Below are positions 10,485 through 25,285 of a stretch of DNA of 41,181 nucleotides, one piece after another. The translations under genes were made by a program, and so were the position numbers. Origin of the DNA: a bacterium. GTDB lineage: Bacteria; Planctomycetota; JADGBV01. The first letter of the stretch is position 1, and each line of letters starts with the position of its first letter. The notes under the pieces are model-generated. The model saw only the letters and a list, made by a program, of their open reading frames with translations, did not search any database and was not told the DNA's origin. The stretch is taken from the NCBI GenBank assembly GCA_023261545.1, contig JAHFOS010000018.1, forward strand, positions 1 through 41,181. Direction: 5' to 3'.

Positions 10485-10520
10485 GCACGCTTGTCCTGTG
10501 GTTCTTGTTGGGGATTCGCT

Positions 10521-11303
10521 ATGAGCCGTATTTGGTTGCCGGGCTTCCTCCTGTTGATTTTTCTGCCCAGCGTTCAGGGAGCCGATGCCCCTGTCGGCAA
10601 GGTGGTCTCCACCAAGGGGGACGCGACCATCGCCCATGGCTTGGATCCCAAAAAGCCAGCGGCGGCCGGCGATCCGGTCTTCGAGAAGGACCGCATCAAG
10701 ACCGGAACGGACGGAGAAGTCGTGGTGGACATGAACGGTGCATCCAAGATCACCGTGGGCCCCGACAGTTACTTCAAGATCACTGGCACCCAGGACAAGA
10801 AGACGGAGTTGAACCTTTTCAGCGGCCAGGTGAAATGCAAGGTCAATAAGCTCGAAGACGGGTCTGCGTTCACGGTCAAGACCCCATCGGCTGTCGCCGG
10901 TGTGCGCGGCACCGAGTTCGAGACGCAGCTCGATTCCCAGATGAACACCCTGGTGGCCGTCGAGGAAGGCACGGTGTGGAACGCCGATCCGGAGCAGCCC
11001 GACAACGTCATGGTCGTCAACCAGGGCCAGTGCGGGTTGCTGCTTGCCACCGGCGACGCCATCAAGGGCAGCATCGAGCCCGGATCTTCCGTGTTGCAGT
11101 TGGCCCAGAAGATGATGGGGGAGATGCAGGACAAGGCCGTACAAAGCGCCCTGGGATCCATGGACGCGAAAATGGACGAAATGCGCGCCCAGAAGCTCCA
11201 GGAGCTTGAGGATCGCATCCAGCTCATCGAAAGCCGCTTGCAGTTCCTGCAGGCCGAGGCCGCCAAGAAGGATCTGCCCGAACCGCCCACCACGCCGCTC
11301 TGA
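10521..11303 (+). CDS. Exported FecR-domain protein
   Basis: A 260-residue protein with a signal peptide (MSRIWLPGFLLLIFLPSVQGA, cut near residue 20-22). A FecR-type beta domain follows: GKVVSTKGDATI, DRIKTGTDGEVVVDM, and the hallmark TPSAVAGVRGTEFE. The C-terminal quarter (about 195-250) is a charged helical region likely to form a coiled coil (MDEMRAQKLQELEDRIQLIE). It lacks a transmembrane anti-sigma segment, so it is more like the secreted FecR proteins that accompany envelope machinery than the TonB-linked FecR regulator. It has its own promoter with a CRP-like site and precedes the TPR-ExbB-ExbD operon. ATG 10521 was chosen because the signal peptide starts there. Confidence 0.82.
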   Translation: MSRIWLPGFLLLIFLPSVQGADAPVGKVVSTKGDATIAHGLDPKKPAAAGDPVFEKDRIKTGTDGEVVVDMNGASKITVGPDSYFKITGTQDKKTELNLFSGQVKCKVNKLEDGSAFTVKTPSAVAGVRGTEFETQLDSQMNTLVAVEEGTVWNADPEQPDNVMVVNQGQCGLLLATGDAIKGSIEPGSSVLQLAQKMMGEMQDKAVQSALGSMDAKMDEMRAQKLQELEDRIQLIESRLQFLQAEAAKKDLPEPPTTPL

Positions 11304-11341
11304 GCGGCGGAGGTATTTTAAAGTAGGGCGGGGGGGGCGCC

Positions 11342-11365
11342 CCGGTTCCTTTCCCGAAGGACCGG
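11342..11365. other. GC-rich hairpin between the FecR-domain gene and the TPR operon
   Basis: CCGG-T-TCCTT at 11342-11351 pairs with AAGGA-CCGG at 11357-11365 around a TCCCG loop, with one bulged T. Runs of eight G lie on both sides. There is no T-tract, so a rho-independent terminator is not well supported. Confidence 0.35.
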
Positions 11366-11442
11366 AGGGGGGGGAAGCCAAGACGTCAAGTGCTGTCGTC
11401 GGTTTTCGCCTTTTCCTGAAACCCGCGCGGCCAGCCGCCAGT

Positions 11443-11470
11443 TTGACGGCCAGTGAGATCCCCGTATACT
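11443..11470 (+). promoter_or_regulatory. Sigma-70-type promoter of the TPR-ExbB-ExbD operon
   Basis: TTGACG at 11443-11448 and TATACT at 11465-11470 are separated by 16 bases. A start near 11477 leaves a leader of about 20 bases before the TTG start codon at 11498. Confidence 0.6.
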
Positions 11471-11497
11471 CGCGGCGCTTTGTTGGCGGTCAAAGGA

Positions 11498-14400
11498 TTG
11501 ATCTACCTCGGGAAGAAGTGCGCCTCGGCGGCGGTGTTCTGGCTCATGGCTTTCACGCTTTCCTTGAGCGCTCAAACGCCCGAGGATCTCTACGATGGCG
11601 CCACGCTGCTCTTCAATAACGAGGAGTACGATCTCGCCGGCGCCGAGTACCGCAAAGTGCTGGCCGCCGCCTCCGGCAATAGCGACCTCGAGGGGCGCTG
11701 TGCTTTCCAGGTGGCCGAGTGCGCGTTCCAGCTCAAGCAGTATGAGGCCGCAGAGGAAGCCTTCCGCGCCTACCTGAAGCAGCACGCCGGTCACGGCAAA
11801 CACGCGGAAGGCCAGTTCCGCCTTTCCGAGAGCTGCTATTTCCTCAAGGATTTCGACGCCGCGGAAAAGAATTACGAGCGCTTCCTCGAGGAAAATCCCA
11901 AGCACGAGCTGGTTCCACTCGCCCTGTATGCCGCCGCCAGCGCCGCCCTCGAGGTCGGGCGTTTCGGGCCCGCCCGCGAGCGCTTCGCCAAACTGGTGGC
12001 AGAGTATCCGCAACATCCCAAGGCCGAGGAGGCGCTGTTCAACATCGGCTGGGTGAGCCTGCGCGAGCAGAAGTTCGCCGAGGCGCAAAAGGCGTTCCTC
12101 GATTTTTCCCAAAGCCACCCGCGCTCAAAGCTGCGGCCCGAGGCCTTGCTCAGAGCCGGGGACGCCGCCTTTCGCGCCGAGGGTTACGCCGCCGCCCTGC
12201 AGCACTACAACCAAGTGCTCTCCGATGGGGAAGGCGCCTTCGAGCGCGACGCCCACCAGGGCATCGCCTGGAGCTATTTCAAGCTCAAGGAGTACGAGAA
12301 GGCCGCCATTGGTTTCCTGAAACTCGCCCGCGTCCATAAAGAGGCCGAACCGCGCGCCCTGGCCTACTTCCAGGCGGTGCAGTCTTTTTACAACGCCGGG
12401 AAGCATGAGGAGGGGCTCCAGGCCGCGGACCGGCTCATCCAGGAGAGTCCCAAGAGCCCGCTGGTCGCGGACGCCTGGTATTGGAAGGGCGTGTTCCTGC
12501 GCGCCCTCGACAAGGGGGGCGAGGCCGCCGAGGCCTTCAACAAAGCGCTGGCGGCCGGCACCACCAAGACCACCTCCGCGGAGGTCCGCCAGGAACTCGC
12601 CGGGGTGTACTCGGCCAACAAGGAGTACGCCAAGGCCACCGCGGCGCTCGAACAGGCGCGGGCCGAGGCCAAGGAAGGCCGGGGGCTCAACCAGGTGCTC
12701 TATGATCTGGCGCGCAACTACCACCTCGCGGGGGAGGGCCAGAAAGCGGTGGCGACCAGCGAGGAGCTTCTGAAAACAGCCGGCGCCGATCCCGCCACGC
12801 TGCTGCTCACGCGTTTCAACCTGGGCGAGTACCTTTTTGCCCTCAAGGAATACGCGCGCGCCATGCCTTCCTACCAGACGGTGCTCGACGACAAGGAGAC
12901 CAGCGCGGACCTTCGGGCTGACGCCGCTTACCGCATGGGCTGGTGCCTGAAACTCCTCGGCAAACCCGAGCCGGCGCTAAAGGTTTTCGGAGCCATGGAC
13001 CTTTCCGAAAAAAGTCGCTACGGGCGCGAGGTGCGCTTCCTGATGGCCGGTCTCGAGGAAGTGATGAACCACCTGGACAAGGCGGAAGCCGGCTACCGCG
13101 AACTGCTTTCGAGCCGCGGCCCTTTCACGGCGGATGCCTACCTCGCCATCGCCCAACTGCTTTTCAAGGCCAAGCGCCACGGGGACCTCATCGCCCTGCT
13201 CGACGAGTTCCTGAAGGGGTTCCCGGGCCATGAGCGCGAAGCCAGCGCCCACTACCTGTTGGCCGAGGCGGCCTACGAAAGCGCGCAGCCCGAACTCGCC
13301 CTCGACCATTACACCCGGGCCATCGCACTGAAGGATCCCGCCGCGCGCGAGCGCGCCCTCTACGGACGCGCCTGGCTGTACTACAAGCGCGAGCGGCCGG
13401 CGGAGGCGATGGCGGACATCGAGGCGCTGTTCCAGGAATTTCCGCAGAGCAGCTTCAAGCTCTCCGCCCTGCAGCTCCAGGGCAGCCTGTTGCGCGCGCG
13501 CGGCGAGCCGGCGAAAGCCAAGGTGGTTTATGAAAAGGGCCTGGCCGCGGCCAAGCCTGAAGAGCGCGAGGAGCTGCTGTTGAGCCTGGCCGGCACCGAG
13601 GTGGACCTCAAGAATTTTCCGGCGGCGCTGGAATTCTACAGCCGCTTCATCCAGGAGTATCCGGCCAGCCGCCAGCTCGGGAGGGCTATCTACGAGAAGG
13701 GCTGGCTGCTGATGCAGATGGAGCGGCCCGAGGAAGCGGGGGCGGCTTTCCGCCTCTACGCCAAGAACTTCGAGAAGGGCGAGCTCATCTCCGACGCCGA
13801 GTTCGCGCTGGGGGAACTCGCCTATGGGCGCAAGGAGTACCGCCAGGCGCTGGAGCGTTACGCCGCCTGCCTCGGGGACGAGCGCTACAAGGATAAGGCG
13901 CTCTACAAGCTGGGGTGGAGCCATCACAGCCTCAACCAGTACGCCGAAGCGGCCGCGCACTTCGGCAGGCTGGTGGCGGAGTGTCCGGCCTCCGTCCTCA
14001 AGCTCGAATCCATGTATCGCCAGGGTCTGGCCGAACTCATGGGCGCGCGCTTCGACAAAGCCGCAGCGGCCCTTGAGGGCTACATGAAAACCGCCACGCG
14101 CTCCGACGCCTTCTACGGGGATTCGCTCATCAACCTGGCGCGCATGTACGAGAAGCTGGCCAAACCCGACCTGGCGCGCGCCCGCTACGAGGATTACCTG
14201 GGCATGTTCCCGGAAGGGACCGAGCGCACCGAAGCCGAATACAGCGTGGGTCGGTTGCACCTTGAGGCGCGCGAGTACGCCAAGGCCGCTGAACGCTTCG
14301 AGCGCGCGAGCGCCGACAAGACGCACCCGCGCGCGCTGGAGGCGCTGTTCTTCCTCGGCGAGTCCTGGTTCCAACTGGGGAAACACGATGAGGCCGTGAA

Positions 14401-14596
14401 GGCGTACTTGAAGACCCTGCTCTACAAGGACGGGAAAGTCTGGCAGGCGCGCAGCCTGTACCGCATCGCCCAAAGCTACACGGCCCAGGCCAAGTCCGAC
14501 AAGGCCGCGAAATACCTGCGCAAACTGGTGGACGAATTCCCCGACACCGAGGAAGCCAAAAAGGCCGCCTCCGAGCTGGCCCAAGCAGAAAAATGA
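11498..14596 (+). CDS. Large exported tetratricopeptide-repeat protein
   Basis: About 1032 residues, almost wholly TPR units of the TolA-binding/YbgF and BamD kind, with recurrent A-x-F-x-x-G-x-x-Y/F-x-x-A-x-x-x-Y/F patterns and the linking motif EYP/EFPxS (for example LVAEYPQHPKAEEALFNIGW). The N-terminus (LGKK, then ASAAVFWLMAFTLSLSAQ) reads as a signal peptide when translation begins at TTG 11498, which directly follows AAAGGA; ATG 11546 is the alternative. It overlaps the exbB-like gene by ATGA. Together with ExbB and ExbD this suggests a periplasmic scaffold coupled to a proton-driven inner-membrane motor, analogous to but much longer than the CpoB/YbgF partner of TolQRA. No TolB or Pal is in the window. 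Confidence 0.85.
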   Translation: MIYLGKKCASAAVFWLMAFTLSLSAQTPEDLYDGATLLFNNEEYDLAGAEYRKVLAAASGNSDLEGRCAFQVAECAFQLKQYEAAEEAFRAYLKQHAGHGKHAEGQFRLSESCYFLKDFDAAEKNYERFLEENPKHELVPLALYAAASAALEVGRFGPARERFAKLVAEYPQHPKAEEALFNIGWVSLREQKFAEAQKAFLDFSQSHPRSKLRPEALLRAGDAAFRAEGYAAALQHYNQVLSDGEGAFERDAHQGIAWSYFKLKEYEKAAIGFLKLARVHKEAEPRALAYFQAVQSFYNAGKHEEGLQAADRLIQESPKSPLVADAWYWKGVFLRALDKGGEAAEAFNKALAAGTTKTTSAEVRQELAGVYSANKEYAKATAALEQARAEAKEGRGLNQVLYDLARNYHLAGEGQKAVATSEELLKTAGADPATLLLTRFNLGEYLFALKEYARAMPSYQTVLDDKETSADLRADAAYRMGWCLKLLGKPEPALKVFGAMDLSEKSRYGREVRFLMAGLEEVMNHLDKAEAGYRELLSSRGPFTADAYLAIAQLLFKAKRHGDLIALLDEFLKGFPGHEREASAHYLLAEAAYESAQPELALDHYTRAIALKDPAARERALYGRAWLYYKRERPAEAMADIEALFQEFPQSSFKLSALQLQGSLLRARGEPAKAKVVYEKGLAAAKPEEREELLLSLAGTEVDLKNFPAALEFYSRFIQEYPASRQLGRAIYEKGWLLMQMERPEEAGAAFRLYAKNFEKGELISDAEFALGELAYGRKEYRQALERYAACLGDERYKDKALYKLGWSHHSLNQYAEAAAHFGRLVAECPASVLKLESMYRQGLAELMGARFDKAAAALEGYMKTATRSDAFYGDSLINLARMYEKLAKPDLARARYEDYLGMFPEGTERTEAEYSVGRLHLEAREYAKAAERFERASADKTHPRALEALFFLGESWFQLGKHDEAVKAYLKTLLYKDGKVWQARSLYRIAQSYTAQAKSDKAAKYLRKLVDEFPDTEEAKKAASELAQAEK

Positions 14597-15360
14597 TAAC
14601 CCACATCTTTTGTTCCCCCATCCTAAAGTCCTCCGCGCGCGGCGCGCTGGCCTGGGCGGGTCTTGCCGCAGCCGCCAGTGCCGTCGAGGTGAACGGGACT
14701 TCGCAATCGCTCATCATCAAGGGGTCGTTCTGGGACATCTTCGCCAGCGGCGGGCCGGTCATGTATCCGCTGCTCTTGTGCTCGCTGGTGGCCATGGCTT
14801 ACGCCCTGGAGCGCTTCATGGCCTTGCGCCGCGCGAAGATCATCCCCGAAGAACTGCGCGGCGCCCTGGAGGCCGCGCTGGAGAAAGTGCCCGATGGCGC
14901 GGGGCGCGTCGCCTTGGCCGGCCGCTTCAAAGGGGGCGCCACCCCAGGGGAAAAGCTCGTGGCGCGCTTCCTCATCCGGCAGGATTACGACAACGCCCGC
15001 GATATGGAGCAAATCCTCCAGGAGTACACGGATGCGATGCTCTATGAACTGCACCGCAACATCAAGCCGCTGGCGGTGATCACCCAGGCCAGCCCGCTGC
15101 TCGGCCTGCTCGGCTCGGTGCATGGCATGATCCTGGCTTTCAATGCCGTGGGCGTGCATGGCTTCGGCAAGCCCGAGATCCTGGCCAACGGCATGGCCAC
15201 GGCCCTGTTCACCACTTTTTTCGGCCTCGCCATCGCCATCCCGTCCGCCTTTTTCCACCATCACCTGAAGGAGAAGGCCACGCGCCTCGCTCTGGACCTC
15301 TACAACACCGTGCATGAACTCGGGCTGGCGCTGGTGGCGGCCAGCAAAGGGCGCGGGTGA
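14593..15360 (+). CDS. MotA/TolQ/ExbB proton-channel family protein
   Basis: A 255-residue inner-membrane protein. An N-terminal hydrophobic stretch (13-31) may be a signal peptide or extra helix. The three family helices lie near 55-75 (PVMYPLLLCSLVAMAYALERF), 158-183 (with the conserved ASPLLGLLGSVHGMILAF) and 199-222 (GMATALFTTFFGLAIAIPSAF). ExbB/TolQ pentamers form the proton-motive stator around an ExbD/TolR dimer. It starts at ATG 14593 overlapping the TPR stop, and its stop overlaps the exbD-like GTG start by GTGA, so the three genes are one translationally coupled unit. Confidence 0.9.
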   Translation: MITHIFCSPILKSSARGALAWAGLAAAASAVEVNGTSQSLIIKGSFWDIFASGGPVMYPLLLCSLVAMAYALERFMALRRAKIIPEELRGALEAALEKVPDGAGRVALAGRFKGGATPGEKLVARFLIRQDYDNARDMEQILQEYTDAMLYELHRNIKPLAVITQASPLLGLLGSVHGMILAFNAVGVHGFGKPEILANGMATALFTTFFGLAIAIPSAFFHHHLKEKATRLALDLYNTVHELGLALVAASKGRG

Positions 15361-15776
15361 AGCTGCTCAAACAGTCCATCGGCGAAGAGGCGGTGGTTCC
15401 CTTGATGACCCCGCTCATTGATATATTCCTGCTCATCATCTTTTTCCTGCTCACCTGCACCTTCGCGAGCGGTGAGAAGGAGAAGGAGCTCACCATCCAC
15501 CTTCCGGCCACCAAGGGCGGATCGCGCGGGGTGGAGGGGATGCGCTGGTATTTCAACGTGATGGAGACGGGAGCCGTCGTGCTCCAGGGCCGCACGGTCA
15601 CCCTCAAGGAGGTGGACGGCCTGCTGGAGGCCGAACACGAACGCCGCGACGGCATCTACCTCATCGTGCGCGCCCACGAGAACGTCCCTTACCGCATGGT
15701 GGCCAAACTCATGGGCCTTTTCAGCCGCCACGGCTTCGCGCGCGTGGCCTTCCAGACCATTGACGAGAAGGAATGA
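15357..15776 (+). CDS. ExbD/TolR-family protein
   Basis: A 139-residue protein with a single N-terminal transmembrane helix (about 14-34, VPLMTPLIDIFLLIIFFLLTC) holding the conserved proton-carrying aspartate D22. A periplasmic domain follows (ELTIHLPATKGG, then DGIYLIVRAHENVPYRMVAKLM and FARVAFQT). It forms the rotor or plug dimer inside the ExbB pentamer. Starting at GTG 15357, it overlaps the previous stop. With the TPR protein upstream it forms a motor-plus-scaffold set whose partner at the outer membrane is unknown; the TonB encoded at 29191 is a possible user. Confidence 0.9.
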   Translation: MKLLKQSIGEEAVVPLMTPLIDIFLLIIFFLLTCTFASGEKEKELTIHLPATKGGSRGVEGMRWYFNVMETGAVVLQGRTVTLKEVDGLLEAEHERRDGIYLIVRAHENVPYRMVAKLMGLFSRHGFARVAFQTIDEKE

Positions 15777-15848
15777 GCCGGTGTACAAGCGTGGAAAATA
15801 GCGTATCATGAGCCCGCCCTCCCGGCTTACCCCCTGAACGAGTCGCTG

Positions 15849-16139
15849 ATGAGCGATCAACAACTGGATCTACGCCTCGCCGCGCAGGTGGCCCACCTGA
15901 GTCGCATCGCCGTCGCCGGCGAGCGGCTGGAGGAGGCCGCCCAGCGTTTCACGGGGGTCCTTGAAGCCTTCCGCGTGATCCAGACCCTCGAGCCACCCGA
16001 GGCGGGGGAGGCGGCGCAGCCGCTCGGCAGGGCGGATTTGCGGGCCGACGGCCCCGCGTCATCCTTCGGGGCGGACCGGGCGCTCGCCAACGCGCCCCAG
16101 TCGCACCGCGGCCATTTTCGCGTGCCGCCGGTCCTCTGA
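15849..16139 (+). CDS. gatC: Aspartyl/glutamyl-tRNA amidotransferase subunit C
   Basis: A 96-residue protein with the GatC pattern: an N-terminal helix (LRLAAQVAHLSRIAVAGERL), an acidic and proline-containing middle, and the diagnostic C-terminus ALANAPQSHRGHFRVPPVL. GatC stabilises the GatA-GatB complex that converts Glu-tRNA(Gln) and Asp-tRNA(Asn) to their amides. Neither gatA nor gatB lies next to it. Its stop overlaps the ATG of the FapA-like gene (TGATG at 16137-16141). The separation from gatA/gatB may reflect genome rearrangement. A GluRS gene at 37215 could supply the mischarged tRNA. Confidence 0.85.
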   Translation: MSDQQLDLRLAAQVAHLSRIAVAGERLEEAAQRFTGVLEAFRVIQTLEPPEAGEAAQPLGRADLRADGPASSFGADRALANAPQSHRGHFRVPPVL

Positions 16140-17578
16140 TGCCTGAAGGCGCCAAGCTCGTTCGCGAGGAGAACCTGGGGGATTTGCACCTGCGGCTCTA
16201 TATCAGCGACGATCAGTGCGAAGCCTCTTTCCAATTCAAGCGCATCGATCCCGGCTGCACCGTGGCCCCCGATTTCCTGAAGAAGATGATCGTTGACGCC
16301 GGAGTCGTGAACGGCATGGACGAGAACCGGGTCATGGAGCTCGCCGAGGCCTGCTGCGCGGGTTCCTTGAAGGCGTCGGAGGAATTGGTGAGCGTCGCGC
16401 GCGGCAAGCGGGCCGTCCAGGGCACGGACGGTCGCGTCGAATTCCTGATCAAGCCCAGCGCCGAGAACGTGCGCTTCAACGTGACCAAGGATGAGGCCAT
16501 TGATTACAAGAACACCAACCTCATCCAGAACGTGCTCAAGGAGCAGCACCTCGCCACCGTGCATCAGCCGGGAGCCGCCGAAGAAGGCCGCGATCTCTTC
16601 GGCAATGCCATTCCGACCCGGGCGGGCCAGCCCGTGGAGGTGCACCTCGGCCCCAATGCGGTGATGGAGGACGGCAAGATCTACTCCCAGGTGAACGGCC
16701 GTTTCGTCCTCGAAAACGATATCCTCAGCGTCAACCCCGTCTACCAGGTGCGCGGCGACGTGGACTACACCGTCGGCAACGTCAACTTCATCGGCCTGGT
16801 GCAGATCCAGAAGGACGTCCTCGACGATTTCAGCGTTTTCGGCAAGGAGGGGGTGGAGGTGAACGGCGTGATGGGCGCCGCCAACGTGGAAAGCGAGGGC
16901 CACGTCACCGTGAACGGCGGCGTGAATGGCAAGGGACGCGGTTACATCCGCGCCCTGGGCGCGGTGCGCGCCAAATACTTCAACGAGGTGAGCGCCGTCT
17001 GCCGTGAGGACGTGGAGGTAGCCAAGAGCATCATGAACAGCACGGTGAAAACCAAGGGCAAGCTGATCTGCCCCATGGGCAACGTCATCGGCGGGTCGGT
17101 GGTGGCCCTCATGGGCATTGACGTGGGCAGCGTGGGGTCGGACCTCGGGGTGGAGACCTCCATCACGGCCGGGGTGGACTACGAGATAGCCGACAAGATA
17201 GCCACCTACGAGGCGCAGATCGATGAAATTACGCGCGAGATCGAGCGCATTGATCGCGTCGTCGGCCCGGTCCTCGCCAACAAGCAGAAGCTGATGGCGC
17301 TGAGCCCCGACAAGAAAAAGGCCCTGAAGGGCCTGCTCGAACAATTGAAGAAGCACCAGGCGGAGCAGGGGGAGATGCAGAAGAACCTCGACGAGATCCG
17401 CAAGCAGAGCGTGGGGCAGCGCGCCAAGGAGATCCTGGTGCGCAAAATGCTCTACAGCGGCGTCAAGGTGTGCATCGGCCACTGCCGCAGGCTCATCAAG
17501 ATGGAGGTGCGCGGTCCCATCCGCCTGCGCGAGGACGCCGAGAACGAGACCATCTCCATCGCCAACCTTCAAGGCTAG
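16139..17578 (+). CDS. FapA/DUF342 family protein
   Basis: A 479-residue protein of the DUF342 (flagellar assembly protein A) family. After an N-terminal region with a GxxVxxGDxL-poor variant (GRDLFGNAIPTRAGQPVEVH), a long right-handed beta-helix-like domain occupies about 195-360: PVYQVRGDVDYTVGNVNFIG, DVLDDFSVFGKEGVEVNGVM, GHVTVNGGVNGKG and SIMNSTVKTKGKL. A coiled coil follows (about 355-420, YEAQIDEITREIERIDR). Family members act in flagellar or pilus placement and in bactofilin-like scaffolding; no flagellar gene is present here, so a role with the pilus-type ATPase directly downstream (4 bases away) is more likely. Confidence 0.88.
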   Translation: MPEGAKLVREENLGDLHLRLYISDDQCEASFQFKRIDPGCTVAPDFLKKMIVDAGVVNGMDENRVMELAEACCAGSLKASEELVSVARGKRAVQGTDGRVEFLIKPSAENVRFNVTKDEAIDYKNTNLIQNVLKEQHLATVHQPGAAEEGRDLFGNAIPTRAGQPVEVHLGPNAVMEDGKIYSQVNGRFVLENDILSVNPVYQVRGDVDYTVGNVNFIGLVQIQKDVLDDFSVFGKEGVEVNGVMGAANVESEGHVTVNGGVNGKGRGYIRALGAVRAKYFNEVSAVCREDVEVAKSIMNSTVKTKGKLICPMGNVIGGSVVALMGIDVGSVGSDLGVETSITAGVDYEIADKIATYEAQIDEITREIERIDRVVGPVLANKQKLMALSPDKKKALKGLLEQLKKHQAEQGEMQKNLDEIRKQSVGQRAKEILVRKMLYSGVKVCIGHCRRLIKMEVRGPIRLREDAENETISIANLQG

Positions 17579-17582
17579 GCGC

Positions 17583-19277
17583 GTGGCGGGCATCGGCGAC
17601 AACCTGGGGTCCATCCTGCTGGAGCTCAAATGGGTCAAGAGGTCCCAGCTCGACGTGGCCCTGAAGCAGATCTCCGAGGGCGCCAGCGAACGGCTGGGAC
17701 AGATCCTTTTAAAGTCCCAAGCCATCACCGAGCAGCAGCTCGCCCAGGCCTTGGCCATCCAGAATGGCCTGGAGTACGTTGAGGGCGCGGCGCTGAGCTC
17801 CACCCCCGAGGCGGTGGAAAAGGTGTCCTTGGAATTCGCCAAGCAACGCCACGCGCTGCCGCTCGACGTCAAGGACGGCGTGCTGACGGTGGCCATCGAG
17901 GATCCCCTGGACCTCAGCCTCGTGGACGACCTGCGCTTCATGACGAACCTCCAGGTGCTCTGCAAGGTGGGCGGCCAGAGCGAGCTCATGGCGGCCATTG
18001 ACCGCAGCTACGAGGGTGCCACGCGCTCCATGGAGAAACTCATCAGCGAGGTGGCCCACGACGTGGAAGTGGTGCTGGATACGGAGGGCGCGGAAGGTGA
18101 CGGTGATGAGGACGCTCCGGTGATAAAACTGGTGCACCTCATCATCACCCGGGCGGTGCAGCAGCGCGCCAGCGACATCCACGTCGAGGCTCTGGAGAAG
18201 AGCCTGCGCGTGCGCTACCGCATTGACGGCGAATGCGTGCTGGCCGACAGCCCGCCGAAGAAATTGCAGGGGTCCTTCTACGGACGCCTCAAGATGATGG
18301 CGGGGATGGACATCGCGGAACGACGCAAACCCCAGGACGGGGCCATCAAAATAAAGGTGCTGGGGAGGCTCATTGATTTGCGCGTGAGCTCCCTGCCCTC
18401 CTCTTTCGGGGAAAGCATCGTCATGCGTATCCTCGACAAGCAGTCGGTGCTGAAGGGCATGAACCAGTTGGGGTTCCATCCCACCGATTACGCCTCCTTC
18501 AAGGACCTCATCGCCCGCCCCAACGGCATCGTCCTGGTGACCGGCCCCACCGGCAGCGGCAAGACCACCACGCTCTACGCCGCGCTGGGCGAGAAGAACA
18601 AGCCCAACGTCAAAATCATCACCGCCGAGAACCCCGTGGAGTACAACGTCTCGGGCATCAACCAGATCCAGGTCAACCACGAAATCGGGCTGGACTTCGC
18701 GCGCATCCTGCGCGCCATGCTGCGCCAGGCGCCCAACGTCATCCTGGTGGGCGAGATCCGCGACCTGGAAACCGCCACTATCGCCATCGAAGCCTCGCTC
18801 ACCGGCCACCTGGTCTTTTCCACGCTGCACACCAACGACGCCCCCTCCACCATCACGCGCCTCATTGATATGGGCATCAAGCCCTACCTCGTCAGCAGCT
18901 CGGTCATCGCCGTGCTGGCGCAGCGGCTGGTGCGCGTGAATTGCGAGCAGTGCCGGGAAATCTATAACCCGGACCCCGCCAAGATGCTGGCCGCCGGCAT
19001 CACCCCGGAGATGGCCGAGGGCAAGACCTTCGTGCGCGGGGCCGGTTGCCAGAACTGCAACAACACGGGCTATCGCGGGCGCCTCGGCATCTATGAGCTC
19101 ATGCGGCTCGGCCACGAGCTGCGTGACGCCATCTTCCACAACAAGCCCACCCACGTCCTGCGCGAGCTGGCCGTCAAGGGTGGCATGCACACCCTGCTCA
19201 TGGACGGGGTGCGCAAGGTCTTCGCCGGGCTCACCACCGTGGAAGAGGTTTTAGGAGTCGCCAAGAGCTTAGAATAG
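17583..19277 (+). CDS. GspE/PilB-type secretion or pilus assembly ATPase
   Basis: A 564-residue hexameric ATPase. It has an N-terminal MshEN-like domain (9-140, LGSILLELKWVKRSQLDVAL and a LGQILL repeat), the N2 segment ASDIHVEALEKSLRVRYRIDG, Walker A GPTGSGKT (321-328), the Asp box, Walker B VILVGEIRD (386-394), the His box TGHLVFSTLHTNDA, and a C4 zinc module (C454, C457, C489, C492). All catalytic motifs are intact. It starts at GTG 17583, 4 bases after the FapA-like stop. No pilC/gspF, pilT or pilM/N/O gene is nearby, so it must work with proteins encoded elsewhere or with the membrane proteins downstream. Confidence 0.92.
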   Translation: MAGIGDNLGSILLELKWVKRSQLDVALKQISEGASERLGQILLKSQAITEQQLAQALAIQNGLEYVEGAALSSTPEAVEKVSLEFAKQRHALPLDVKDGVLTVAIEDPLDLSLVDDLRFMTNLQVLCKVGGQSELMAAIDRSYEGATRSMEKLISEVAHDVEVVLDTEGAEGDGDEDAPVIKLVHLIITRAVQQRASDIHVEALEKSLRVRYRIDGECVLADSPPKKLQGSFYGRLKMMAGMDIAERRKPQDGAIKIKVLGRLIDLRVSSLPSSFGESIVMRILDKQSVLKGMNQLGFHPTDYASFKDLIARPNGIVLVTGPTGSGKTTTLYAALGEKNKPNVKIITAENPVEYNVSGINQIQVNHEIGLDFARILRAMLRQAPNVILVGEIRDLETATIAIEASLTGHLVFSTLHTNDAPSTITRLIDMGIKPYLVSSSVIAVLAQRLVRVNCEQCREIYNPDPAKMLAAGITPEMAEGKTFVRGAGCQNCNNTGYRGRLGIYELMRLGHELRDAIFHNKPTHVLRELAVKGGMHTLLMDGVRKVFAGLTTVEEVLGVAKSLE

Positions 19278-19283
19278 CCCGCC

Positions 19284-20357
19284 ATGACCAACAACGTCTA
19301 CGTCTATATCATCATCCTTTTCGGGCTCCTGGGGTCTATGAGCAGCCTGCTCTGCTACAACCTCTCCAAGGAAGCCCAGGAGAAGCTTGAAAGCAACCGC
19401 GTGGATATGAAGGGCGTCGAGGCCCGGGCCAACGACTTGACGACGAAGCTCAAGACGCTCGGCGAAAAACAGAGCGAGCGCATCAAGCTGCGCAATGAGA
19501 GCCGTGTCCTCGCCTCCTCTATCCTGGCCGCGGATCGCGAGCTCAAACGCGCCAGCCTGCACCGCGGCTGGTATGAGCGCGGGGTGGAGTTCCATGCCGC
19601 GCGATCCGATCGATTGAGCGGCCAGGTGGCGAGCGTCCAGGATGCCATGCGCGAGGAGATCTCCAACGTCGAGCGCACCCAGCAGGAAATGGAAACCTAC
19701 TACAAGAGCGCCGGCGAGGACATGGGGCACCGCATGGACGGGCTCAAGCACCGCGAGGAGGAGAACCTCAAGACCAAGACCTTCGAGACGGCCAAGATCG
19801 AGTCCGAGGTCAAGAACTACGAGATCAAGATCAACCGCGAGCACCAGGTGGTTTACAACCGCTTCGCCACGCCGGAAGGCGTGGGACGGATCCTGGAAGT
19901 GCTGCACGGCGAGCACAAGATAATCCTCGACGTCGGCTCGGCGGCGGGCGTCAAGCAGAACTTCAAGTTCAAGGTTTTTAACCTGGCTCCCGACGGCGAG
20001 GTGGTGGACAAGGGCTTTGCCGTGGTGAAGTCCGTGAGCGACATGTACGCGGTGGCCGCCCTGCTTTACGACGACCCCAAGCGTGAGCCGGTGTTGCCGG
20101 GCGACCGGGTGGGGAGTCCCGCCTACACCCAGGGGGGGCGCCGCTTTTTCCTCGCGGGAAAGTTCGACACCAAGTTCAACAAGGCCCAGCTCACGTCCTA
20201 CCTGCAGTACATGGGCAATCTAGTGGTGGAGGAGTTGAGCCCCTCCGTGGACATGGTGGTGGAGGGCAAGTTCTCGGAAATGCAGGTGGCGCAGGCCGCC
20301 ACCATGGGTATCCTCATCATACGTGAAGACCAACTGGTGCCTTTCCTCGGAGACTGA
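19284..20357 (+). CDS. Membrane-anchored coiled-coil protein with a C-terminal BRCT-like domain
   Basis: A 357-residue protein with four regions. Residues 7-27 form a transmembrane anchor (VYIIILFGLLGSMSSLLCY). Residues 28-190 form a long charged coiled coil. Residues 198-282 form a small beta domain (GRILEVLHGEHKIILDVGSA, then a GDRVG ending) that resembles FlgT C-terminal-like domains. Residues 286-357 form a BRCT-like domain: RFFLAGKFDTKFNKAQL, YMGNLVVEELSPSVDMVVEG, then a helix and MGILIIREDQLVPFLG. The typical GG pair is GN here, so this copy is more diverged than the next gene's. It begins 6 bases after the ATPase stop and abuts the next gene (TGATGA). BRCT domains usually bind DNA ends or phosphopeptides in the cytosol; a membrane-linked one is unusual. 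Function unknown. Confidence 0.7.
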   Translation: MTNNVYVYIIILFGLLGSMSSLLCYNLSKEAQEKLESNRVDMKGVEARANDLTTKLKTLGEKQSERIKLRNESRVLASSILAADRELKRASLHRGWYERGVEFHAARSDRLSGQVASVQDAMREEISNVERTQQEMETYYKSAGEDMGHRMDGLKHREEENLKTKTFETAKIESEVKNYEIKINREHQVVYNRFATPEGVGRILEVLHGEHKIILDVGSAAGVKQNFKFKVFNLAPDGEVVDKGFAVVKSVSDMYAVAALLYDDPKREPVLPGDRVGSPAYTQGGRRFFLAGKFDTKFNKAQLTSYLQYMGNLVVEELSPSVDMVVEGKFSEMQVAQAATMGILIIREDQLVPFLGD

Positions 20358-21871
20358 TGAACGCGAGCTCCATCTTCGAACGCGCCAATTTCTACTACTT
20401 TGGCAGGCGCGCTTATCCCGCCATCCTCATCGGGGTGGTGCTGACCGCTATTTTCGCGGTGGGGGGGATCCTGGCGGCCATAGCTTCCTGGTCCTGGAAA
20501 ACCAACATGGATGAGACGCAGCGCGCCATAGCGGAGCTCAAATTCAATATAGACCGCGAGATATTCGGTACCGATCTGGAGATCGCCAGGCAAGGCGTGA
20601 GCGATTACCTGCGCGACCGGCCCGCGGTGGACGCCGAGGACAAGTTCAACGTCAAGCTGGGGAAGGAGGCGCGCTTCAATGCGGACCAGCGCGTGGCGTT
20701 GCTGCGCAAACTGCGCCGTCTCCAGGGCGATGCCGCCAAGACGGCGACGGAAGAAATGCTGCGCGAATTCCAAATCGAAGAGGGGGTGGAGGACAAAATA
20801 GCCCGCGAGGACGCGCTCATCAATTTCTTGAAGGGGTTCATCGGCGGGGCGCCCGAGCTGGCTCAGTTGTTCGAGGCGAGCAAAAGGGATCGCGACCTCA
20901 TTCCTCCGGAGGTGCTGGTCCTCATGGAACGGGCGCCCGAGCTGGCCGGCGGCGCCAAGGCGTTGCTGCAATCCCGGGTGGATGCCCTGCGCAACGAGCG
21001 CGGCCAGAACACCGAACTCACCACCCGCTTCGATGGCGCCGTCGCCGGGGCCTTCGAAAATTTCGAAAAGCGCAACACCACCTTCAAGGACCTCAAGGGC
21101 AACCTCCTGGAGAAGCGCACCGGCTACGAAAGCAGCTTCTGGTCTAAAATGGACGAGCAGCGCAAGCAATGGACCGGATACTTGCAGGCCTCGGTGGACC
21201 ACATCGCCAACGTCACCGGGCGCCAAAACCACATTGACGAGCTGCTCAGGGAAAAGGAACAGCTCAAGCGCATCCTGGACGCTCGCAGCGGTGAGGGACA
21301 AGGCTGGCTGCCCATCCTCGACCTCATTGACGGGCGGGTGCTCTCCGCTAATCCCGAACTAGGGTTCGCCGTCATTGATATCGGCCGCGAAGACGGCCTC
21401 CGCATCGGGCAGGGTTTCGACGTCTTCCGCATGAAGGGTGAGGCGCGGCAAGAAACCAAGGGGCGGCTGGAGGTCCAGTTCCTTGAGGATCGCATCAGCA
21501 TCTGCAAGATAACCGCCCGCGAATCCCTGAACCCCATCGCGGCGGGGGACAGCGTGGCCAATGCCCGCCAGGACACGCCCTTCGACCGCAAGGTGCGGCC
21601 CCAGTACGCCCTGCGCGGCCGCTTCCCGGAGTTCCCCTCGCGCGCGCTGGTGACGGCGATGATCGAAAGCTCGGGAGGGAAGGTGGTGAATGACCTGAGC
21701 GAACGCACGAATTTCCTGGTCACCGGCGACGACGTGAAACAAGAGGAAATCTCATTGAGCAAACAACTGGGCCTGCGCGTCATCCGCACCGCGGACATGA
21801 TGCAGCATCTCGGCATGGCCCTGGAAGACGTGCGCAGGATTGAGGAGAGGACATGGAAATTCGATCAATGA
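20357..21871 (+). CDS. Membrane-anchored coiled-coil protein with a clear BRCT-like domain
   Basis: A 504-residue protein with the same plan as its upstream neighbour. Residues 21-45 are transmembrane (PAILIGVVLTAIFAVGGILA), with R9, R17 and R18 on the N-terminal side, which predicts an extracytoplasmic C-terminus. Residues 50-310 are helical and rich in charge. Residues 316-402 form a FlgT-C-like beta domain (DGRVLSANPELGFAVIDIGR, then AAGDSV). Residues 415-487 are BRCT-like, with YALRGRFPEF, IESSGGKVVNDLSERTNFLV and LGLRVIRTADMMQHLGM. The GGK and T-x-F-L-V motifs match DNA-ligase-type BRCT repeats well. It starts at ATG 20357, overlapping the previous stop by one base, and overlaps the next gene by 19 bases. 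Probably a structural partner of the upstream protein. Confidence 0.75.
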   Translation: MNASSIFERANFYYFGRRAYPAILIGVVLTAIFAVGGILAAIASWSWKTNMDETQRAIAELKFNIDREIFGTDLEIARQGVSDYLRDRPAVDAEDKFNVKLGKEARFNADQRVALLRKLRRLQGDAAKTATEEMLREFQIEEGVEDKIAREDALINFLKGFIGGAPELAQLFEASKRDRDLIPPEVLVLMERAPELAGGAKALLQSRVDALRNERGQNTELTTRFDGAVAGAFENFEKRNTTFKDLKGNLLEKRTGYESSFWSKMDEQRKQWTGYLQASVDHIANVTGRQNHIDELLREKEQLKRILDARSGEGQGWLPILDLIDGRVLSANPELGFAVIDIGREDGLRIGQGFDVFRMKGEARQETKGRLEVQFLEDRISICKITARESLNPIAAGDSVANARQDTPFDRKVRPQYALRGRFPEFPSRALVTAMIESSGGKVVNDLSERTNFLVTGDDVKQEEISLSKQLGLRVIRTADMMQHLGMALEDVRRIEERTWKFDQ

Positions 21872-23103
21872 ACGGGGTCCCGAGTCGAGTCCGCTGTAGG
21901 GCGGCGTTGGTGGGAGCGCTCCTCGCTTGGGCCGGAATCCAGGGCGAAGAACCCGCCGTGCGCGTGCAGTATTCCAACAACCGCCACCTGGTGGTCCAAT
22001 ACAAGGTGCGCGACTCCATGACCGAGGATAACGTCCTGCAGTCGCGGCTGTATTACACCCTGAACAGCGGCATCAGTTGGCGCTTCTATGGCCTCGACCC
22101 GGACGGGCGCAGTCCCATGGAGTTCCTCGCGGACAACGACGGTCTCTATGGCTTCAAGGTCGGCTCGGTGGACCGGGCCGGACACGAGGAATCCGCGCCG
22201 ACGGCGGGGACGCCGCCGGACATCCTCGTGCTGGTGGACACCGCCGCCCCTCGCGTGCGGCTCCTGAGCCCCGCGGCCGGAGAACTCTGGGAGGCTGGAA
22301 CAAGGCGCCTGCTGCGCTGGGAGGCCGAAGACGAGGCCCTGGAAGAGGGGAACTGCGTCACGCTTTACAGTTCCGCGGGAAGCGAGGGGAACTGGCATGA
22401 AATCGCCAGCGGCCTGCCGGCGCGCGGCCAGTTCGCCTGGACGGTTCCCGACTCCGAAAGCGGCGAAGTGTTCCTCAAGGTCAGGGTCATGGACCTCGCC
22501 CGCAACGCAGCGACGAGCGAGGGTGGCCGCTCCTTTTTCACGCGCAACGTCATGGAGGACCGCCTCTCACGCGAGGTGCGCGACCAGGCCAACCGTTATT
22601 ACGAGGCCGCCACCATCGCCCGCAAGAACGGCGATACCGGCAAGGCGGTGAAGTACTACCGGCTTTGCCTGGAGCTCAACCCCTACCTGGTGGGCGCGCA
22701 CAACGATCTCGCCCTCGCGCTCCTGGATGCCGGGGAGCCGGAGGAGGCCTTCGAGCATTTCGAACTGGGCCTCAAATACGCGCCCTCCCGGGAGCCCTTG
22801 CTGGCGAACCTCGCCGAGCTTTACCTCTCTTACGGCCAGACCGCGATGGCGCGCAAAGTGCTGCTGCGGCTCCTGCAGGTGAACCCCAAAAGTCCGGAGG
22901 GCCTGTGGCTAGCGGCCCGCGAGGCCGAGGCCAGCGGCGATCCCGAGCGCGCGCGCATCTATCTGAAGCGCCTGACGAACCTGGACTTCCCCGAGGGCTC
23001 CGCCGGACAGCGTATGGCCGCCGGCGCGTTGGAAGCTCTTGCGCGCGTCGAGGCGCAATCCAGCGGCGTGCATGCGTTGGCCATCCCCCAGGCGAGGCGC
23101 TAG
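21853..23103 (+). CDS. Exported Ig-like/TPR protein
   Basis: A 416-residue protein. A signal peptide (about 13-31, VRCRAALVGALLAWAGIQG) leads into two beta-sandwich-like regions (35-130 with YYTLNSGISWRFYGLDPDGR and YGFKVGSVDRAGHEES; 133-230 with VRLLSPAAGELWEAGTRR and FLKVRVMDLARNAATSEGG). The second resembles the Ser-Thr-rich GPI-anchored/Ig-like repeats found in surface proteins. Residues 240-380 are three to four TPRs (NRYYEAATIARKNGDTGKAV, LLDAGEPEEAFEHFELGLKY). It starts at ATG 21853, inside the end of the BRCT protein gene, after GAGGAGAGG. It completes the run starting at gatC, and its export supports an envelope site for the whole set. Confidence 0.75.
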   Translation: MEIRSMNGVPSRVRCRAALVGALLAWAGIQGEEPAVRVQYSNNRHLVVQYKVRDSMTEDNVLQSRLYYTLNSGISWRFYGLDPDGRSPMEFLADNDGLYGFKVGSVDRAGHEESAPTAGTPPDILVLVDTAAPRVRLLSPAAGELWEAGTRRLLRWEAEDEALEEGNCVTLYSSAGSEGNWHEIASGLPARGQFAWTVPDSESGEVFLKVRVMDLARNAATSEGGRSFFTRNVMEDRLSREVRDQANRYYEAATIARKNGDTGKAVKYYRLCLELNPYLVGAHNDLALALLDAGEPEEAFEHFELGLKYAPSREPLLANLAELYLSYGQTAMARKVLLRLLQVNPKSPEGLWLAAREAEASGDPERARIYLKRLTNLDFPEGSAGQRMAAGALEALARVEAQSSGVHALAIPQARR

Positions 23104-23348: not shown

Positions 23349-24218
23349 TTGCCCGTGCGCGGCCGCGTCAAATTCTTTTCCCGCAGCAAGGGTTACGGCT
23401 TTATCCTTGAGGAGGAAAGCGGTTTAGAGCGCTATTTCAACGACCACAACGTGAGCGGCGACCTTCCCCGCAAGGGAGAGCTCGTCGAGTTCGAGCCGGC
23501 GGAAAGCGAGGGCCACCCCCAGGCGGACAACGTGCGCGTGGTGGCCGAGAAGATGCCCACGCTCATCGAGTGCAAGGCTTGCGGGCAACTGTGCGTGCCG
23601 CGCATCTACCGGCGCCACGAGGCGCTCATGAGTCCCGCCACCGAGCACATCTGCCCGCTCTGCGGAGTGACCCTCTATGAAACGGGAGGGGGCTTCCAGC
23701 CCGGGGTGCGCTGGGGGTTCTGGATCGTGCTTTGGAGCTTTGCCCTCATGATGGTGGACCATTTTTGCCTCAACCGCATCTTCAACCCGGACTTCTTCAG
23801 CCGTGAGAATTTTTTCGTGGTACCCATGTTCAAGTTCATTCCCGGCGAGCTGCTGGCTTTTGCCCTGCCCATGGTCCTGCTGCCCCCGCTGCTCATCCTG
23901 GGACTGCGAAGCGCCGTCCTGGAGAGTGCCGCGCGCGCCCTCACGCACTCCTTGGCCTTCCTCGTAGCCCTGGCCTTCGTCCTCTATCTGCAGACGGGAG
24001 GGAAAATCGCCAACGCCGCTGACGTCAACACCAATTTCCTGTGGGCGGCCTTCAACGCCTTCTTCCTGTGGATCGTGGTGGACCCCTTCTTTCGCGCGGG
24101 CGACTTCATCGCAGACCGCTTGCGGCAACGCCGCATCGGGGTTTCCCAGCGGGCGGCCCCGGCGGCGGTTTCGCCATCCCAGGAGGCGGGAAAGACGGAA
24201 AGCGCGGAAAAGCGCTGA
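23349..24218 (+). CDS. Cold-shock domain / zinc-ribbon / membrane fusion protein
   Basis: A 289-residue protein. Residues 3-66 form a cold-shock domain with RNP1-like KGYGFIL and RNP2-like RYFNDHNV motifs (binds single-stranded RNA or DNA). Residues 75-105 carry a zinc ribbon, C75-x2-C78 and C102-x2-C105, with C82 between. Residues 121-250 hold about four transmembrane helices (WGFWIVLWSFALMMV, ELLAFALPMVLLPPLLILGL, ALTHSLAFLVALAFVLYL, LWAAFNAFFLWIVV), and a short charged tail follows. Cold-shock domains fused to membrane DUF1294 proteins are known, but I do not see the DUF1294 signature here. The start may be TTG 23349 or GTG 23355; neither has a good ribosome site. It is monocistronic, right after repeat copy A. 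Confidence 0.75.
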   Translation: MPVRGRVKFFSRSKGYGFILEEESGLERYFNDHNVSGDLPRKGELVEFEPAESEGHPQADNVRVVAEKMPTLIECKACGQLCVPRIYRRHEALMSPATEHICPLCGVTLYETGGGFQPGVRWGFWIVLWSFALMMVDHFCLNRIFNPDFFSRENFFVVPMFKFIPGELLAFALPMVLLPPLLILGLRSAVLESAARALTHSLAFLVALAFVLYLQTGGKIANAADVNTNFLWAAFNAFFLWIVVDPFFRAGDFIADRLRQRRIGVSQRAAPAAVSPSQEAGKTESAEKR

Positions 24219-24232
24219 GGGGGACAGCCTTC

Positions 24233-24380
24233 GGAGGCACCCCATGGGGTACCTCCACAAGGGGGGTGCAACCACCGGTTGCCCCAACGAATACGGGTCG
24301 GGGAATAGTTGGTAGGGGTGCCCCTTGTGAGGGGCACTCGTATGGGGGCACCCTTGTGGGGGGCACCCGCAGGGGTGCCC
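24233..24380. repeat. Cluster of GGGGCACC/GGTGCCCC hairpins
   Basis: At least three stem-loops in 150 bases. GGAGGCACCCC/GGGGTACCTCC lies at 24233-24256. GGTGCCCCT/AGGGGCACT lies at 24317-24339. A perfect pair, GGGCACCC at 24361-24368 and GGGTGCCC at 24373-24380, closes the cluster. The units share a GGGGCACC core and a CTTGTG spacer (24324-24329 and 24352-24357). No protein frame is convincing here. The cluster lies between the cold-shock gene and the pseudopilin promoter. Confidence 0.65.
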
Positions 24381-24541: not shown

Positions 24542-25285
24542 GTGAAAAAGCCAAGTTTCTTCACGCTCATCGAGCTGCTGGTGGTGATCGCCATCATCGC
24601 CATCCTCGCTGGGCTGCTCATGCCCGCCTTAGCCAAGGCGCGACTCGCCGCGAACCGCACCTCTTCGGACAACAACATGAAGCAGATCTCGGAGGGAGTG
24701 CTCATCGCCAATAACCCGGATCCGAAGTCAACGTTCGGGCAGGGATGGGACTACCCGATTGGAGTCCACACCGTCAATGGGGACGACGCGGCCATGAAGT
24801 ATCTTTTTGTCATCGGAGACCCCAGCGTTGCAGCGAACAAGATCAACGTGGGCCATACCAGTTGTTCTTCAGGAGCATCTGGCAACGCGGATGCGATCCA
24901 AAAGCGCTACCAGGTTTTCATTGACTACGCCGGCAAGCACCCCTTCGACGACCAGAAGGGATATTACTCTTACTACGGGGCCGTTAAAGTTGGCGCTGCG
25001 GCGGCCAATGCAACCCGCAAGGAAAAGTTCAGCACCACGGACCGTATCGTCGTCGAGAACTACCGCTTCGGCGCGAACTTCGACAAGGGTGACAGCCGCA
25101 TCGGCGTCTGCTTCGCGGACTCCCATGTGGCCAAGTTCTTGGTGGATGCGGGCAACGCTGATTCAACGACGGGCGCCGTTACGGAAGGCATGCTGTCAAT
25201 CCTCAATACGAGAAGGGTCATGTACCTGAAGGGTGAGGACGGAGCGCCCCTCAATGGGTTGTATCCTGCCACGCCGGCGGATTGA
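24542..25285 (+). CDS. Type II/IV pseudopilin with PVC-type N-terminus
   Basis: A 247-residue protein whose N-terminus is a prepilin signal: a short basic leader (KKPSF) then [18 protein letters not shown] and helix [16 protein letters not shown]11 is the conserved Glu5 of the mature pilin. The residue before the cleavage site is Phe rather than Gly. The C-terminal half carries [14 protein letters not shown], like the FADGHV segment of the pseudopilins numerous in Verrucomicrobiota and Lentisphaerota. It would be processed by a prepilin peptidase and may be assembled by a PilB/GspE-type ATPase such as the one at 17583. It has its own promoter and a strong terminator, so it is a single-gene unit and probably well expressed. 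Confidence 0.88.

What the first reader, a model, noticed from the sequence alone, without database searches (positions are those of the whole stretch)
15849..23103. Compact run: gatC, FapA-like, PilB-like ATPase, two BRCT membrane proteins, exported TPR protein
Six genes lie on one strand with gaps of at most 6 bases or overlaps. FapA/DUF342 proteins are linked to flagella or pili, but there are no flagellar genes and none of the usual pilus partners (PilC, PilT, PilM/N/O/P/Q). The ATPase has all catalytic motifs. The set looks like a module in which the ATPase drives something built by the membrane proteins that follow it.
Basis: partly seen in the sequence, partly recalled or inferred. Interest (0 to 1): 0.6.

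Follow-up and report, generated by a model that had tools for sequence, protein, structure and literature searches.

The report
Pilus motor with new envelope partners
In a little-known lineage of planctomycete bacteria, the gene for one of two pilus-type motor proteins sits in a tight, conserved gene run with a scaffold-like protein and a pair of seemingly undescribed membrane proteins that probably reach into the cell envelope; the motor is a known kind, its partners look new and are worth testing.

Summary
Six same-strand ORFs (GatC, FapA/DUF342, PilB-type ATPase, two bitopic coiled-coil/BRCT proteins M1 and M2, exported Ig/TPR protein) lie at 15849-23103 with gaps of at most 6 bp. The same six, in the same order and equally tight, occur in the only other genome held for the class (Planctomycetota MAG JADGBV01, 29-63% protein identity), while three other orthologous loci of the two genomes share 0, 0 and 1 neighbour.

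The ATPase is no orphan: it belongs to a phylum-wide PilB-a clade that usually sits in a PilB-a / PilT-sized ATPase / PilB-b / PilC cluster. In this genome PilB-b+PilC and PilM...secretin are on other contigs. The genome has flagellar export genes too, and FapA tracks FlhA across the phylum. GatC is the only GatC found, an ordinary passenger.

What looks new is the M family: TM anchor, coiled coil, small barrel, BRCT, probably facing outward; phylum-wide, usually near coaE-rho/tatC. Best reading: a displaced PilB-a motor, working with pilus parts encoded elsewhere, made together with a scaffold and an envelope-spanning accessory pair. Function is inferred, not shown.

The parts
15849..16139 (+). 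gatC, amidotransferase subunit C; the only GatC match in this genome; likely passenger of the transcript
   Evidence: Pfam GatC 27.4 bits; single GatC match in each of the 2 genomes of the class; 43% identical in G001
16139..17578 (+). fapA (DUF342): FapA_N plus beta-solenoid domain; proposed cytosolic scaffold
   Evidence: Pfam; 53-54% identical in G001; pairs with the G001 copy 100/100
17583..19277 (+). pilB-a, pilus-type extension ATPase with MshEN and T2SSE domains
   Evidence: Pfam, motifs, inside the PilB-a clade 100/100
19284..20357 (+). M1: N-terminal TM helix, coiled coil, small barrel, BRCT
   Evidence: AlphaFold2 model pLDDT 85.8; fold matches to LigA BRCT Z 11.7 and FlgT barrel Z 10.0-10.8
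20357..21871 (+). M2: paralogue of M1 with a longer helical part
   Evidence: Pfam BRCT over cut-off; model pLDDT 79.7; fold matches
21853..23103 (+). Exported protein with an N-terminal hydrophobic signal-like stretch, Ig-like part and TPRs
   Evidence: TPR families; 45-49% identical in G001; Ig-like reading by eye

Best explanation
The run is a lineage-specific accessory operon of a type IV pilus (or pilus-like secretion) machine. Its ATPase is PilB-a, an extension-type motor that elsewhere in Planctomycetota sits beside a PilT-sized ATPase, PilB-b and PilC, and here lies next to FapA and the M1/M2 pair. Proposed working: (1) PilB-a hydrolyses ATP and turns the PilC platform encoded on contig C261 (motifs shown; pairing inferred). 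(2) FapA, a soluble beta-solenoid protein with a coiled coil, clusters or positions the motor (inferred). (3) M1 and M2 are each anchored in the inner membrane by one helix, pair through long coiled coils, reach into the periplasm and hold a barrel and a BRCT domain there, as a collar or clamp around the machine (architecture predicted; outward topology predicted; pairing and role inferred). (4) The exported Ig/TPR protein is a further envelope-side assembly factor (inferred). GatC is a passenger of the transcript.
For: Same six genes, order and tightness in another genus at 29-63% identity, while three other orthologous FapA loci of the two genomes share 0, 0 and 1 neighbour. Window PilB is PilB-a with 100/100 support; in 16 of 20 loci fetched PilB-a stands directly beside a PilT-sized ATPase or PilB-b, with PilC in the same stretch in 10. 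PilC, PilM and a secretin exist in this genome. M1/M2: TM stretch in 39 of 39 family members, charge bias for N-in/C-out in 30 of 39 with 7 ties; barrel and BRCT folds. A tandem M pair lies 1.4 kb upstream of PilB-a in G078, a different family.
Against: Only two genomes carry the run, and a UbiA gene is syntenic beyond it, so plain descent explains part of the order. Outside the class M usually lies near coaE-rho/tatC, 23 of 34 loci, and none of 29 FapA stretches from other families has PilB-a adjacent. FapA tracks FlhA, 71 of 78 against 106 of 216, which points to flagella rather than pili. G009, of the same family as G078, has its M pair and PilB-a on different contigs. No expression or interaction data.
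Confidence: 0.5

Rival explanations
1. The six genes share a promoter but no joint function: a displaced pilB-a, the genome's gatC and an M pair with an older general envelope role came together in the ancestor of the class and stayed.
For: GatC is housekeeping and the only copy. M is phylum-wide without PilB or FapA beside it in the other M loci fetched at first. Synteny reaches beyond the run to UbiA. Only two genomes carry it.
Against: Neighbours of three other orthologous FapA loci are mostly not kept, though those stretches are short. A second M/PilB-a proximity in G078.
Confidence: 0.25
2. One reading: a self-contained new machine without PilC, in which PilB-a drives something built by M1, M2 and the TPR protein themselves.
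For: No PilC in the run of either genome; the ATPase has its motifs.
Against: The ATPase is PilB-a, usually found in one cluster with PilC; PilC is present in the genome.
Confidence: 0.1
3. The run serves the flagellum: FapA is a flagellar assembly factor and M1/M2 are FlgT-like ring or collar parts.
For: The FlgT C-terminal barrel is among the best fold matches of both M1 and M2; FapA tracks FlhA; the genome has FlhA.
Against: M does not track FlhA: 153 of 255 with, 24 of 39 without. F1-ATPase barrels match nearly as well and the Pfam FlgT_C hits are under the cut-off. The flagellar export contig C279 has none of these genes.
Confidence: 0.08
4. A DNA-uptake or DNA-tethering device: the BRCT domains of M1/M2 bind DNA, outside (competence) or, with the opposite topology, inside the cell.
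For: Best BRCT fold matches are LigA and RFC1, which act on DNA; pilus motors drive DNA uptake in other bacteria (recalled).
Against: The phosphate-contacting Thr of such BRCTs (recalled) is present in 1 of 39 family members. Charge bias does not favour the inside topology.
Confidence: 0.07

Closest known systems
Type IVa pilus extension ATPase PilB / T2SS GspE (TIGR02538, TIGR02533)
   Same: Full-length match, 595.8 and 587.7 bits, MshEN and T2SSE domains, motifs and tetracysteine; member of the phylum's PilB-a clade
   Different: Under the cut-offs of both equivalogs (675.65 and 630.25); no PilC, PilM or secretin beside it; ENPVE in the acidic box
FapA / DUF342 (PF03961, PF20250)
   Same: Both Pfam domains over cut-off; the family goes with FlhA in the phylum
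   Different: Sits beside pilB-a, not in a flagellar operon; the flagellar export contig of this genome has no FapA
PilN/PilO, GspL/GspM inner-membrane proteins
   Same: Short cytosolic end, one TM helix, coiled coil, periplasmic domain (general architecture, recalled)
   Different: M1/M2 end in a barrel and a BRCT, not a ferredoxin-like fold; a PilM protein and PilO-like ORF exist on C36
FlgT, flagellar H-ring protein
   Same: C-terminal barrel superposes on the M1/M2 barrels: Z 9.7-10.8, 2.0-2.4 A over 78-81 residues, entries 3w1e and 8z5n
   Different: No other FlgT domain seen; F1-ATPase barrels match nearly as well; M is as common in genomes without FlhA

Membership tests
PilB/GspE extension ATPase | T2SSE domain with Walker A, Walker B, His box and tetracysteine | tested here: met
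   the acidic box has N for D
PilB/GspE extension ATPase | Groups with a PilB clade found beside PilC | tested here: met
   Tree 100/100; neighbours in the phylum
PilB/GspE extension ATPase | Score over an NCBIfam PilB or GspE equivalog cut-off | tested here: not met
   595.8 against 675.65 and 587.7 against 630.25; so it is named here only as PilB-type
Complete type IV pilus operon | PilC, PilM-Q encoded with the ATPase | tested here: not met
   Absent from the run; PilC on C261, PilM and secretin on C36
FapA (DUF342) | FapA_N and FapA beta-solenoid domains over cut-off | tested here: met
   105.8 and 191.6 bits
FapA (DUF342) | Role in flagellar assembly | not testable with these tools
   Only co-occurrence with FlhA was tested, for the family as a whole
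BRCT domain | BRCT fold | tested here: met
   Models of M2 and M1: Z 11.6 and 11.7; Pfam over cut-off for M2
BRCT domain, phosphate-binding kind | Thr/Ser before the conserved Gly of the first strand (recalled) | tested here: not met
   Thr in 1 of 39, Ser in none
FlgT | FlgT_C domain | tested here: inconclusive
   Pfam under the cut-off; fold match nearly tied with unrelated barrels
M family (named here) | Outward (N-in/C-out) topology | tested here: inconclusive
   Charge bias only: 30 of 39 N-in, 7 ties, 2 against

The most novel reading that the evidence does not exclude
M1/M2 belong to an undescribed, phylum-wide Planctomycetota family of inner-membrane-anchored coiled-coil proteins that carry a BRCT domain, a fold known from DNA repair, outside the cytoplasm, and that serve as an envelope-spanning collar of a PilB-a-driven pilus machine; the window shows the one lineage in which collar, motor and cytosolic scaffold are encoded in one operon.
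Probability: 0.25. Interest if true: 0.8.

Novelty: new variant of a known kind. Interest (0 to 1): 0.5.

Why it matters
If the M pair is part of a pilus machine, Planctomycetota pili have an envelope component unlike PilN/O/P, and a BRCT fold has been put to use outside the cytoplasm. The run gives ready candidates (fapA, M1, M2) for what sets the phylum's two PilB paralogues apart. If M is instead a general envelope protein, the phylum still gains a widespread family with no known role next to coaE-rho and tatC.

Tried and rejected
Orphan PilB: rejected, since it falls in the PilB-a clade. FapA-PilB as a widespread pair: rejected outside the class. Of 29 FapA stretches fetched from other families and 8 paralogue stretches from the two genomes, none has PilB-a adjacent (many are cut by contig ends). 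Two come near: in G130 (L138) a remote T2SSE ATPase lies 0.5 kb from FapA, in G056 (L159) PilB-a is 5.7 kb away. An earlier count gave the FapA total as 38 outside the pair; the count is 29 plus 8.

c-di-GMP control through the N-terminal MshEN part: left open. The MshE-related motif model scored 37.8 against a cut-off of 38; the script lines that were to compare it with G001 did not run (one search stopped with an error).

M as a flagellar part: not supported by co-occurrence. The tally 294 of 294 for the M profile includes weak hits; I used best E under 1e-20 (255 of 294), a line chosen after seeing the table; coiled coil or LigA BRCT may still inflate it. M in viral contigs: one pattern match, no relative. 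Wider named genomes: the FapA profile found only JADGBV010000039.1; that scan rests on two short peptide patterns, so distant modules could be missed. Metagenomes could not be scanned. TPR protein: relatives over the phylum share mostly the Ig-like or the TPR part, so it told little. A sigma-70-like site at 15782-15809 upstream of gatC was not used; such sites are near chance level (4 found, mean 1.1 in shuffles).

Papers: a DUF342 lead (PMC5182063, passages) proved to be DUF3426 and was dropped. PMC11279305 (one passage): Tad/Pil genes of Singulisphaera are up on chitin; nothing on this run. PMC11607428 (passages): FapA in flagellar gene clusters. No paper on the M family or on a FapA-PilB run turned up in the searches (open-licence PMC only; listings and abstract starts seen).

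Full report
What is there. Six ORFs run on the + strand from 15849 to 23103: GatC, FapA, a PilB-type ATPase, M1, M2 and an exported Ig/TPR protein. Junctions are overlap 1, gap 4, gap 6, overlap 1, overlap 19 (or 4). Pfam and NCBIfam support all but M1 directly. The ATPase keeps Walker A, the GEIRD Walker B, the His box and the tetracysteine; the acidic box reads ENPVE, where the orthologue in G001 reads EDPVE.

Whose genome. The window is one contig of a 4.56 Mb draft in 288 contigs. Two genomes are held for its class. G001 is 69% complete, and its contig ends about 120 bases upstream of gatC, so upstream synteny cannot be read.

Conservation. G001 carries gatC-fapA-pilB-M1-M2-TPR in the same order on one strand, with junctions of overlap 1, gap 4, gap 2, overlap 1, gap 4. 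Identities: GatC 43%, FapA 54%, PilB 63%, M1 29%, M2 30%, TPR protein 49% over the aligned part. As a rough background, three other orthologous FapA loci of the two genomes share 0, 0 and 1 further gene, though the G001 stretches are only 4-10 kb. A UbiA-type gene lies convergent to the run in both genomes, so part of the order may be plain descent; in the window a cold-shock/membrane ORF and a pilin-like ORF lie between.

The ATPase. All 119 phylum genomes searched have PilB-like matches. I fetched 20 loci of 119 genomes, most from the top of the ranking and three from lower down. In 16 of 20 the window-type ATPase (PilB-a) is directly beside a PilT-sized ATPase or PilB-b, and PilC is in the same stretch in 10. 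In one more the contig ends at PilB-a. The 36-row tree puts the window and G001 proteins inside PilB-a with 100/100 support, and the C261 copy among PilB-b. So this is the phylum's PilB-a, away from its usual cluster. The own genome keeps PilB-b+PilC on C261 beside a MutL-like gene, PilM and a secretin on C36 with two ORFs without Pfam hits between, an ATPase with two T2SSF domains on C147 and PilT-like ATPases on C72, C78 and C251. The names PilT, PilO, MutL and Tad rest on size, place or reading by eye, not on a test of their own.

M1 and M2. They are paralogues. A single-sequence query found relatives in 49 of 59 genomes; with a 39-row profile 255 of 294 genomes score better than 1e-20. In 23 of 34 loci outside the class the M gene shares a stretch with CoaE, Rho or TatC genes; several of the other 11 are short contigs, and tandem pairs were seen in some. 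The family shares a TM helix, a coiled coil of variable length, a small barrel and a BRCT. AlphaFold2 models (pLDDT 79.7 and 85.8) match LigA and RFC1 BRCTs (Z about 11-12) and the FlgT C-terminal barrel (Z 9.7-10.8), the latter nearly tied with F1-ATPase barrels. A TM stretch is predicted in 39 of 39, and charge bias favours N-in/C-out in 30 with 7 ties. The Thr used for phosphate contact in other BRCTs (recalled) is present in 1 of 39. In G078 a tandem M pair lies 1.4 kb upstream of PilB-a with one opposite-strand gene between; in G009, of the same family, M and PilB-a are on different contigs. In the own genome the only strong M matches listed are M1 and M2.

FapA. Both genomes have five FapA-like matches. 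The module's FapA pairs with the G001 module copy (100/100), nearest, with weak support (80/88), to FapA of family f32. One such f32 locus (L126) has a sigma-54 regulator, a histidine kinase, RecA and a trypsin-like protease beside FapA, not pilus or flagellar genes. Over 294 genomes FapA goes with FlhA (71 of 78 against 106 of 216; Fisher p 8e-12, not corrected for relatedness), while M does not (153 of 255 against 24 of 39). The own genome has FlhA on C279, with neighbours that I read by eye as FlhB, FlhF, FlhG and a sigma-28-like factor, and no FapA on that contig.

Reading. The firm part: a conserved, tight run that couples an intact PilB-a with FapA and an M pair in one deep Planctomycetota lineage. 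The inferred part: PilB-a works with PilC encoded elsewhere, FapA positions it, M1/M2 form an envelope-spanning collar. I put this at 0.5. Co-location without a joint function (0.25) is the main rival; only two genomes carry the run and no expression data exist.

Novelty. The motor and FapA are known kinds. The combination and the M family appear undescribed in the searches made. I file it as a new variant of a known kind, with the M family as the part most worth following.

Noticed in passing
window 10491-15776: Just upstream, same strand: FecR-like protein, 1047-aa TPR protein, MotA/TolQ/ExbB and ExbD/TolR genes, the last 72 bp before gatC; a Tol/Exb-type energised system that might share the transcript.
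   Followed up: partly
window 24542-25285: Pilin-like ORF with an N-terminal methylation motif (20.4 bits, just under the cut-off), 1.4 kb downstream of the run; absent from the same interval in G001.
   Followed up: partly
window 23349-24218: Cold-shock domain fused to a Cys-rich stretch and TM helices (CSD 28.7 bits).
   Followed up: no
window 24322-24369: Short imperfect tandem array of 14-15 bp units, about 3 copies.
   Followed up: no
L138 8382-13151 (G130): FapA (742 aa) 0.5 kb from a 683-aa T2SSE ATPase on the same strand: a second FapA/secretion-ATPase neighbourhood in another family.
   Followed up: partly
L145 6124-9220 (own contig C166): A FapA paralogue between a PilZ-domain protein and a protein kinase.
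   Followed up: no
L059 12218-13422 (own contig C261): Three small ORFs (138, 132, 128 aa) after pilC resemble parts of PilC (89, 34 and 40 bits).
   Followed up: no
L044, L050, L057, L058 and other M loci: M genes recur between divergent coaE-rho and tatC-ychF-cinA across Planctomycetota; the meaning of this linkage is unknown.
   Followed up: partly
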